This document shows, one piece after another, positions 1 to 46,500 of a stretch of DNA of 64,000 bases (the stretch's first letter is position 1; every line of letters begins with the position of its first letter). A program made the translations under genes and the position numbers. Location: contig NC_054742.1 in the NCBI RefSeq assembly GCF_018143015.1, positions 51,345,195-51,409,194 on the forward strand, in the 5' to 3' direction. The DNA comes from Lytechinus variegatus. Lineage: Eukaryota; Echinodermata; Echinoidea; Temnopleuroida; Toxopneustidae. The notes under the pieces are model-generated. The model did no database searches, was not told where the DNA came from, and was given only the letters and a program-made list of their open reading frames with translations.

Positions 1-124
1 TGGTAGTAGTCATGCCTTCGTAGCGAACGGACGCGTCTCTGGGGAGCTCTTGCCCGCTAAATTCAAACCTACTTTGAGAAATGCATTTGTAATCTACATT
101 TTGGTGGCACATAAATTCATCGTT

Positions 125-43500: not shown

Positions 43501-46500
43501 TGAATCAAATTCTGAATGAGTAAATCTAAGTAAGGGGTTATAATAATGAGCATTGTGGCAACGTAATTATTCAGTGTTTGAGGACATATTTATTTAATGT
43601 TTTGTTCTGCTTGTCCATTTCATAGGGAGAAAAGATCCGATCAGAGTTGTTAGAGCTTGTATCAGAGCTCCCACAGACATACAGGTCAATAGAAGAGCAG
43701 GCTAGGAAACTGAGTCAAGTTCTGGAGTTCTATCAAGCATTTGTCCAGTTTGTCAATGGAAGGTATGTGAGCTTTGTTATGACCTTGTATTGTATGTATT
43801 GTTGAGTGATACTGTGATATCCTGCGCCTCTGCATTACCATCTTGGATAGAAATTAGCAGTATCCATTTTACCATCTACATTTTCAGAAATATTGCAGAT
43901 TGATACCTAGGTACTTTGCCATTGTATTTAATGTAGTAGGGTTTCTTTCTGATAGTCCAAAATCCTTAATTATGTAAATTTTTATTGTTGTACATATATT
44001 TTGATCCCTCATTATTCTCATTTTCTGTTTACTTCTAAAGAAGAATGTAAGAATTTCATCTTGTATCCATGTCATTTCAGTGATGAAGAAAGCATGGGAG
44101 ATGTGTGTCCAATGCTACAGTACCTAACACAGCATGGGAACACTACTGTTTATCAATGGAGAACAGGGAAAGTCCCAGACAGGGTTGAAGAGGTCAAACT
44201 AAGCTTCCTGGAAGATGAGGAAGAAACCAAAGATGATGAGGTAAGATATTGAAAAGAGTGAATGGAAGGAATTTTTAATTTGTATGAAATCAAAGCAAAA
44301 GGGCTACCTCAGCAATCATGTCACAAAATGTTTTTCTTTAGCATTTCGGCATTTAACTATACTGTTTCTCAATGTCCATGACCCAAATTTTGTGGGAATT
44401 GGTTCATGGGTGTCCAAGATATGGCTATATTAATACCTACTTTGCCCCATTGAAATCAGTGTAACTTATGGCCTGGTTTCAAAGAGCTATGAACCCGACC
44501 AGTTTACACTGATATTTATGGGGCCTATTAGGTATTCATTTGACTATACCTTGCGCAACCATGAACAAATTCATGTCAAATATGGTGTGTGGACATTTTC
44601 CACATATTCTACCGAAATATGGTCATGAGATTGCTTGAACGCATAAAAAGAATATTGAGATTGGGTGGTCCTTTTCAGGACCAACACTTGCCCAAGAAAG
44701 ATACATGGTTTACCGTGAAACCTACTACACTATTCTTCTTCGCCATGGAAACCTTCAGAAGTTACAATATTGATGATGTGACATTTTGGAACCCTAATTT
44801 TGTACCCTATTTGATCAGTTTCAGTCAGGAAGTTTAGAATACAGACCCTCTTCAATAACAGGTTACCTTGCCTAATGTACCTCAACAAAAGTTGCATCCA
44901 TTGCTTTGCTGCATGCTTGATTTCAATTTGGTTTCTCTAATCCCCCAATGTGTATGGAGAAATACAAGGATAAGTACCGTAGTGAGAAGACATTCTACAG
45001 GATCTCTTCTAAAGCTATGGCAGAATGTATCCCAAATCCTTTCTTAGTCCACTTATACCTCAATCTGATTTCTTGGTATAGATTACCACATTTTCAAAGT
45101 TGGGCGTCTTCAGGTTTGAAGTCTCTGGATGGAAATCGCCATTTTGGCGGGGTTAGTTAAAAATTTAACTTCTGAAGGTTTCCATGGCAAAGAAGAATAG
45201 TGTAGTAGGTTTCACAGTGCACCATGTATCTATCTTGGCAAGTGTTGGTCCTGAAAAGGACCACCCAATCTCGACGTATCAACAAGTGTGTTCTTGTTGT
45301 CTTCGGACTCTTGGTACCTTAGGCATTCTCCTGAAGACGACAAGAACACACTTGTCGAAACCTCAAGTTTGGGTGGTCCTTTTCAGGACCAACAATTGCC
45401 CAAGAAAGATACATGGTGCACCGTGGTTCAAAATTGTGATGTCAACGAAGAAACTACATCTCTAAGTACATATCTGCGTTTGCCTATTATAGATTCTATT
45501 TTACCAATATAAAATCAAATATCCACACAAAGTATCATTCAAAATTTGTTTGATATTATATTGTATTTTCAAAAAGCGATTTGATGAGTTTCAGTAATAG
45601 ATTTTACACCCATATCTAAAATTTTCAAGCTGGCAAACAAGCTAAATAGAGAATAATTAAGTATCTAATTTGCCAATTTAGAAATCATGAATAAGGGTGC
45701 AAAATTTACAGAAGAAGATGATCACAAAAACTGAGATTTTCACATCGGTATAAAGATTCCAACCCCTATAATTGGATGTAACTCCATCCAGGTAACAATA
45801 CAAAAAGAAAATACCAAATTCCAAATACCAAAGAGTGGAATAAAGCTATGTTGTAGACTCAATAAAAAAAATGCTTATACAAATAAGTTTTGAGGCAGCT
45901 TTTGAATGTAGAGCATGTAGATGCCTCCTTAATGGAAGATGGGATCGTATTCCAAAGTTTAGGGGCAGCATAACAAAATGACCTCTCCCAAAGAACTTAG
46001 TCTGAACAACTGGACCACCGGACACTTGAGGAGATATGACATCTGGTTTAAATACAATCTACTTAGAGATGTAGTTCATGGCTGACGTCAAAATTTTCAT
46101 TGGCTCAATTTCAGGTATGACAATAAAAACCCATGTTATGACCTTTTATATGAAATCTAAATATTTGTATCTTTTCCTACTTTATAGATTGATTTCAGTG
46201 GCATTGATCTGGATACAGGAGGAATAGACTTTGGTGATTTAGGAATTTCAGTCGAGAATGAAGGTGCTGAAACCATAGACTTTGACATTGAGGTACATAT
46301 TTAGCTTCATTATTGTTTGTGGGCTATTGTTACAATATTTTCCTCATCTGTGAGTCTGATTATCAGCTTAGATGAACTCAACCTCAGAAAATTTTACCAG
46401 AGTTGAAAATTTCTTCTTTTACAAGCTAGAAAAAAACCCATTGGAATTAATGTGACTTACAGCTATTTCTTCAGTACTCTACTAATTGATTCGAAAAGAT

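What the first reader, a model, noticed from the sequence alone, without database searches (positions are those of the whole stretch)
44667..45409. Three histone-type mRNA 3' ends inside an intronic palindrome, without a histone gene
Seen: the 16-nt GGTCCTTTTCAGGACC stem-loop occurs three times within 750 bp, each time followed after ten bases by CAAGAAAGA or CAAGATAGA. Known: stem-loop plus purine-rich element is the signature for SLBP/U7 cleavage of replication-dependent histone pre-mRNA, and CAAGAAAGA is the sea urchin form. Inferred: a repeat family captured, or evolved, this signal as its own 3' end, which would give non-polyadenylated, S-phase-linked transcripts. Two copies lie sense in CDK5RAP3 intron 8, so they could also truncate the host transcript in cycling cells.
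Basis: partly seen in the sequence, partly recalled or inferred. Interest (0 to 1): 0.85.

Follow-up and report, generated by a model that had tools for sequence, protein, structure and literature searches.

The report
Penelope retroelements with histone-type RNA ends
The three histone-like signals are short, decayed pieces of a jumping gene of the Penelope class; related families of it in this animal, probably a sea urchin, keep the signal that normally ends histone messages, which suggests that these elements borrow the histone machinery to finish their own RNA.

Summary
In detail: GGTCCTTTTCAGGACC occurs three times, followed by CAAGAAAGA after 10 nt (twice) or CAAGATAGA after 9 nt (once). 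It is not an isolated intronic palindrome. The arms are the leader/3' end of a Penelope-like retroelement (PLE): reverse-transcriptase ORF, TATA box, hammerhead-type motif, stem-loop (SL), histone downstream element (HDE), then reverse-transcription start sites. The 16-mer occurs 539 times in the genome. Between three PLE families, SL core, pairing (with changes on both sides of pairs) and HDE are kept while most other leader sequence is not. Outgroup loci lack the SL core (11 of 11), though two outgroup families keep TATA box and hammerhead-type motif. I conclude that one PLE clade carries and selects for a histone-type 3'-end signal (about 0.65). It sits just after the predicted transcription start, where an LTR carries its RNA-end signal. 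No RNA data were available; the window copies look like inert debris.

The parts
44657..44764 (+). PLE family A fragment 1: starts at the predicted hammerhead cleavage site (GAGATTGGG), contains SL and HDE, ends at the distal RT start site (CAGAAGTTA)
   Evidence: homology extents -10 and +82 around the SL (arm L009:955)
44667..44682 (+). histone-type stem-loop, copy 1
   Evidence: exact match
44693..44701 (+). histone downstream element CAAGAAAGA, copy 1
45165..45301 (-). PLE family A fragment 2, inverted: left arm of the palindrome, with degenerate hammerhead-type motif, SL and HDE, ending at the distal RT start site
   Evidence: extents -39 and +82 (arm L009:1550); inverted repeats I3 and I1; sequence
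45247..45262 (-). histone-type stem-loop, copy 2
   Evidence: exact match
45229..45237 (-). HDE variant CAAGATAGA, 9 nt after the SL, copy 2
45324..45425 (+). PLE family A fragment 3: right arm of the palindrome, from near the predicted transcription start (CATTCTCC) to SL+35
   Evidence: extents -51 and +35 (arm L009:1663)
45331..45364 (+). decayed hammerhead-type motif (CTGAAGA...GAAACCTC; GTC has become CTC)
   Evidence: sequence, compared with L031
45375..45390 (+). histone-type stem-loop, copy 3
   Evidence: exact match
45401..45409 (+). HDE CAAGAAAGA, copy 3

Best explanation
A clade of Penelope-like retroelements in this genome carries a genuine histone-type 3'-end signal (SLBP stem-loop plus U7-binding element) in its pseudo-LTR. 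Shown by sequence, for family A: TATA box, initiator-like TCATTC, hammerhead-type motif, SL, HDE, RT start sites, in this order, downstream of the ORF. Inferred: the signal makes the non-polyadenylated 3' end of the element RNA, as a poly(A) signal does in the R region of an LTR, so that element mRNA behaves like histone mRNA. Shown by sequence: many short arms run from two fixed downstream sites back to near the predicted transcription start or to the hammerhead cut site. Inferred: these are run-off cDNAs of the RNA leader, attached to both ends of a DNA break, and so make palindromes like that of the window. The window copies are such short, mutated inserts and probably do nothing themselves.
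For: SL and HDE at histone spacing. Element identity: ORF open for 819 aa with RVT_1 E 4.6e-12; 608-nt inverted arms, 99% complementary. Families B (59% aa) and C (57 and 50%) have AGTCCTTTTCAGGACT-5 nt-CAAGAAAGA and AGTTCTTTTCAGAGCT-10 nt-CAAGAAAGA after their hammerhead-type motif. Of 17 loci at 50-71% identity chosen by ORF only, 12 include a hammerhead-type motif, and these 12 all have the signal (9 whole, 3 altered: L065, L083, L103); the other 5 show neither. In the leaders of A, B and C (one sequence each) the only shared words of 8 or more nt lie in SL, HDE and the ACATGGTGT block; 0 of 2000 shuffles share any 8-mer. Stem pairs 1, 3 and 4 change on both sides while pairs 2, 5, 6 and the loop do not; 35 of 36 cells paired; covariation score reached by 2 of 500 shuffles. 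Tree of seven RT pieces: A+B+C against D-G, support 100/100. Pattern counts with control 0: A-type 497, which includes histone genes and another repeat; B/C-type 1088. 5' ends of arms gather near the predicted start (4 of 22) and at the hammerhead cut (4 of 22) in a sample not chosen by SL.
Against: No RNA, SLBP or U7 data. Rfam's Histone3 model gives 18-19 bits to element SLs in L005, L009 and L069, and nothing at the limits used in the other element loci scanned (L002, L031, L032, L066, L067, L068, L083 among them), against a gathering score of 34 and 38-39 bits for histone genes here: the flanks differ, above all in family A (GGGT before the stem). Family B has 5 nt, not 10, between SL and HDE. 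Within family A, substitution rates are SL 0.0348, HDE 0.0354, other 0.0354 once two subfamily sites are left out (0.0524 with them), and no stem pair has both sides changed. In one search the number of pairs with both sides changed is reached by 55 of 500 shuffles and the number of pair types by 480 of 500; its rows were picked by hand and two of six are histone genes. The same signal lies in the 5' leader, where processing would abort the transcript. None of 27 arms ends 4-5 nt after the SL. Families D-G do without it. The U7 RNA was not found.
Confidence: 0.65

Rival explanations
1. The hairpin is a structural element of the Penelope RNA (for example bound by its own protein for template choice); its likeness to the histone signal is convergence.
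For: A lizard PLE starts reverse transcription in an AC-rich stem-loop near the ORF start (PMC11167929, main text read). Low Histone3 score. SL lies between hammerhead-type motif and RT start.
Against: Stem, loop core CTTTTCAG and a separate CAAGAAAGA agree with the histone signal, at histone spacing in A and C. The variable stem pairs 3 and 4 stay Y-R as in histones. D-G show no SL core (11 of 11 loci).
Confidence: 0.2
2. An ancestor captured a histone gene 3' end by template switching and the piece rides along without function.
For: Family C's first SL context in L091 (GATAAC-SL-AACATATATTCAAGAAAGAATAACAG) resembles real histone 3' flanks. Equal decay within family A.
Against: Pairing, loop and HDE kept in three families at 50-59% protein identity while most of the leader between was not; C elements carry two SLs.
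Confidence: 0.1
3. The signal works in the 5' leader, not at the 3' end: SLBP or U7 bound there controls translation, stability or premature ending of element RNA (self-limitation).
For: Predicted transcription start about 51 nt before the SL; arms end near there or at the ribozyme cut.
Against: A conserved HDE points to processing, which a 3' copy could use and a 5' copy would suffer from; no RNA data.
Confidence: 0.05

Closest known systems
Penelope/Poseidon-type PLEs (e.g. PAc of Anolis, PMC11167929)
   Same: RT ORF, pseudo-LTR with hammerhead motif, two RT start sites near the ORF start with a tail of about 30 nt between them, inverted copies
   Different: Here both RT sites lie downstream of a histone-type SL and HDE; arms that start at the hammerhead cut exist, whereas the paper reports no PAc RNA reads with ends there and no need of the ribozyme for insertion in vitro
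Replication-dependent histone mRNA 3' end (Rfam RF00032 Histone3)
   Same: Six-pair stem, UUUC loop, CUUUUCAG core, HDE CAAGAAAGA, 10-nt spacing in families A and C
   Different: No histone ORF; flanks differ; Rfam score below gathering; pair 1 is A-U in B and C; 5-nt spacing in B; signal would be in the leader as well as the 3' end
LTR retrotransposon U3-R-U5 with poly(A) signal (general knowledge)
   Same: Promoter, then transcription start, then an RNA 3'-end signal, then start of reverse transcription, in that order
   Different: Pseudo-LTRs of a target-primed element; histone-type signal in place of poly(A); strand transfer not shown

Membership tests
Penelope-like element | Reverse transcriptase ORF | tested here: met
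   RVT_1, E 4.6e-12, residues 356-547 of an 819-aa ORF in L031
Penelope-like element | C-terminal GIY-YIG endonuclease | tested here: inconclusive
   GVY...VYIGETGR motif seen by eye; no Pfam match; structure job failed
Penelope-like element | pseudo-LTRs, inverted or tandem copies | tested here: met
   608-nt inverted arms in L031, 603-nt in L032; tandem full copies of family A were not looked for
Penelope-like element | two RT start sites leaving a 30-40-nt optional tail | tested here: met
   Of 27 arms, 7 end at SL+48..52 and 14 at SL+81..84, 6 elsewhere; of 22 arms that by choice reach SL+50, 9 end at +50..53 and 13 at +81..85
Type I hammerhead ribozyme | core CUGANGA / stem II / GAAAC...GUC | tested here: met
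   motif in A, B, C, D and E; F and G have only altered versions; fold shows stems I and II in A. No Rfam hammerhead match
Type I hammerhead ribozyme | self-cleavage | not testable with these tools
   indirect: arms beginning at the predicted cut
Replication-dependent histone 3' end | six-pair stem with UUUC loop and CUUUUCAG core | tested here: met
Replication-dependent histone 3' end | purine-rich HDE at about 10 nt | tested here: met
   A and C 10 nt as in histone genes; B 5 nt
Replication-dependent histone 3' end | whole motif with flanks over the Rfam gathering score | tested here: not met
   at best 19 bits against 34
Replication-dependent histone 3' end | histone ORF upstream | tested here: not met
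   the ORF is a reverse transcriptase; none of the 85 PF00125 matches lies in the window
Replication-dependent histone 3' end | cleavage by SLBP/U7, no poly(A) | not testable with these tools
   no RNA data

The most novel reading that the evidence does not exclude
The pseudo-LTR is a true functional LTR analogue: promoter (U3), a short terminal repeat from transcription start to the histone-type cleavage site (R, holding ribozyme and SL), and U5 (HDE and RT start). Histone-type processing of the downstream copy gives R-U5-ORF-U3-R RNA; reverse transcription starts near the 5' end, runs off at the cap or ribozyme cut as strong-stop cDNA, and jumps to the R at the 3' end, which restores the HDE from the leader. 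This would explain why Penelope elements start reverse transcription near the ORF start, why short arms are so common, and why inserts carry the HDE although the RNA 3' end would not.
Probability: 0.25. Interest if true: 0.92.

Novelty: new variant of a known kind. Interest (0 to 1): 0.72.

Why it matters
To my knowledge histone-type 3' ends belong to replication-dependent histone genes. A retroelement clade with more than a thousand signal copies in one genome that uses the same signal would tie a mobile element to S phase and to the egg's SLBP, compete with histone mRNA for processing, and give a testable answer to how Penelope RNAs end, which the papers I could read leave open.

Tried and rejected
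Chance: rejected. Isolated DNA transposon or foldback element: at first suggested by outward inverted pairs; rejected when the RT ORF, hammerhead-type motif and RT start sites were found. miRNA-like Rfam hits of the palindromes are below gathering and due to the long hairpins. 'Inserts run past the HDE, so the template was not cut by the histone machinery': I held this early on (note); it is not decisive, because reverse transcription starts internally near the ORF start. U7 RNA: Rfam search silent everywhere, controls included; a pattern recalled from memory gave 5 near-matches against 10 for its reversed control. The identity of a second repeat with a histone-type end was not resolved. Literature: the listings show no paper that, by title or abstract start, joins histone-type ends to a retroelement; the one paper with all terms (a squid genome) was not opened; the library holds open-licence papers only. 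Seen: PMC11167929 main text in full; passages of PMC3846280 and PMC7229834. Cervera and De la Pena 2014 and Schostak 2008 are not held and were not read.

In checking this report I mended: the counts of downstream ends (9 and 13, not 10 and 12), the fact that the 22 arms were chosen to reach SL+50 and so say nothing on ends before it, the hammerhead-to-SL distance in family B (about 104 nt), which pattern counted which families, and the negative Rfam results.

Full report
What is there. The 16-mer is present three times as stated, with CAAGAAAGA 10 nt after two copies and CAAGATAGA 9 nt after the third. The window lies in an 869.6-Mb assembly of 33 contigs. The copies lie between two CDK5RAP3 exon matches, two of them in the sense of that gene.

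What it belongs to. The exact 16-mer occurs 539 times. A search with the palindrome gave 83 matches, with 40 of 1180 candidates scored. Longer copies show the source: in L031 an ORF open for 819 aa with a reverse-transcriptase domain is followed, within 390 nt, by a TATA box, CTGAGGACGACAAG...GAAACGTC (hammerhead-type core), GAGATTGGGT, SL, 10 nt, HDE and a conserved block. The ORF also shows a GVY...YIG motif by eye, which Pfam does not confirm. With inverted arms of 608 nt and two end sites, this is a Penelope-like element, here called family A.

How copies end. A first set of 27 distinct arms (after dropping overlapping loci and identical contexts) was chosen by SL or by likeness to the window palindrome, so it is biased upstream. 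Downstream, 7 end at SL+48..52, 14 at SL+81..84 and 6 elsewhere (+13, +22, +35, +43, +56, +70); none ends 4-5 nt past the SL. A second set is 20 loci chosen by an exact block from SL+19 to SL+50, without regard to the SL (20 of 100 listed of 813 matches with up to 3 mismatches). Its 22 arms reach SL+50 by choice; 9 end at +50..53 and 13 at +81..85. PMC11167929 reports for a lizard Penelope element that reverse transcription starts at two adjacent internal sites near the ORF start and that both DNA strands are cut and extended. Both fit here, and explain palindromes such as the one in the window. Upstream, in the second set, 4 of 22 arms stop at 9-10 nt before the SL (the predicted hammerhead cut) and 4 of 22 at 49-53 nt before it, near an initiator-like TCATTC about 31 nt after the start of the TATA box; 14 of 22 stop elsewhere or run on. 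Against an even spread over 171 positions the binomial p values are 0.0001 and 0.0035, but the two intervals were picked after seeing the data and two of the four cut-site arms are from one locus. In the first set 4 of 27 stop at the cut site, window copy 1 among them, and 11 of 27 at 48-52; one locus (L001 = L111) is in both sets.

Decay within the family. Of 145 places with fixed anchors on both sides of the SL-HDE stretch, 100 are listed; 88 without length change were counted and 12 were dropped. Rates of difference from the majority are SL 0.0348, HDE 0.0354, other 0.0354 without two subfamily sites (0.0524 with them); no stem pair has both sides changed. So dead copies show no special protection, as expected after insertion whatever the function. 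The right comparison is between lineages that still spread.

Comparison between families. Protein hits fell into groups at 59, 57, 50-51 and 41-44% identity, with 102 of 909 candidates scored. I fetched the region after the ORF for 20 and, 8 more by ORF (L097-L104) and 12 by the SL pattern (L085-L096; these cannot show that the SL is present, only its context). Family B: AGTCCTTTTCAGGACT-5 nt-CAAGAAAGA, about 104 nt after its hammerhead-type motif, whole in L066, L067, L068, L097, L098, L099, L100 and L104; L065 keeps the core but loses the rest, and L103 has a changed loop with the HDE. Family C: AGTTCTTTTCAGAGCT-10 nt-CAAGAAAGA and a second SL-like hairpin without HDE (L069, and L091 from the SL-chosen set; L083 lacks one loop T; L092 and L093 are altered). 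So of 17 ORF-chosen loci at 50-71% identity, 9 have the whole signal, 3 an altered one, and 5 (L070, L071, L084, L101, L102) neither signal nor hammerhead-type motif in the stretch fetched; L102 has an unpaired CTTTTCAG. Of the 41-44% group, 11 of 11 loci (L072-L082) lack the SL core near the motif (one has CTTTTCAG far away); the HDE was checked in three of them and is absent. D and E keep TATA box and hammerhead-type motif, F and G altered versions. A tree of seven RT pieces, one per family, puts A, B and C together against D, E, F and G, support 100/100. Leaders of A, B and C share no 8-mer except in SL, HDE and the ACATGGTGT block; shuffles never did (0 of 2000). Six distinct stems picked by hand, two of them from histone genes, give 35 of 36 paired cells and three pairs with both sides changed; 2 of 500 shuffles reach the covariation score and the share of paired cells, 55 of 500 the number of changed pairs, 480 of 500 the number of pair types. 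With so few rows this is modest, but the pattern (pairs 3 and 4 free to vary as Y-R, loop and pairs 2, 5 and 6 fixed) is that of histone stem-loops.

How it most likely works. Shown: order of parts, their conservation, and end sites of copies. Inferred: SLBP and U7 process the downstream copy to give the RNA 3' end. In eight stretches from about the ORF end (set by hand) to the RT start there is no AATAAA or ATTAAA, a weak point since D, E and G lack both kinds of signal. Because in family A the SL follows the predicted start of transcription and precedes the RT start, the layout equals U3-R-U5 of an LTR with a histone-type end in place of poly(A); whether cDNA jumps between terminal repeats is a hypothesis. 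In family A the fold also pairs UUGGG before the stem with CCCAA that includes the first three bases of the HDE, which might regulate U7 access.

Against. Element SLs reach at best 19 bits in Rfam's Histone3 model, in three of the loci scanned, and no listed match in the others, below its 34-bit threshold, where histone genes here reach 38-39. Flanks differ. B has a short spacer. The upstream copy of the signal would have to be ignored.

Verdict. A real and, as far as my searches go, unreported pairing of Penelope elements with a histone-type RNA end; the copies in the window are small decayed inserts.

Noticed in passing
L131 (G000:C1:19102900-19103450, -) and L132 (C1:56254900-56255350, +): A second dispersed repeat carries a canonical histone 3' end: CTTTTCAGAGCCACCAAATTACCAAGAAAGA at 8 of the first 100 of 497 places, none at a PF00125 match. 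The two copies fetched read AACGGCTCTTTTCAGAGCCACC and are alike on both sides of the SL; the element is not identified.
   Followed up: partly
L091 (C1:40153150-40153700, -), L069, L083, L092: Family C elements carry two histone-type hairpins in a row, only the first with an HDE.
   Followed up: partly
window 44657; L002; L121; L125: Arms that begin exactly at the predicted hammerhead cut site, which suggests that cleaved RNA served as template; PMC11167929 found no RNA ends there for the lizard element.
   Followed up: partly
L031, L032, L072, L077, L080, L083: A TATA-like box roughly 33-37 nt upstream of the hammerhead-type motif, or of its altered version, in several families, so the ribozyme would sit at the very start of the RNA.
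   Followed up: partly
window 18388, 18548, 19243 (+): Three copies of GGTCATTTTCAGGTCA (3 mismatches to the 16-mer) within 900 nt, apparently another local repeat.
   Followed up: no
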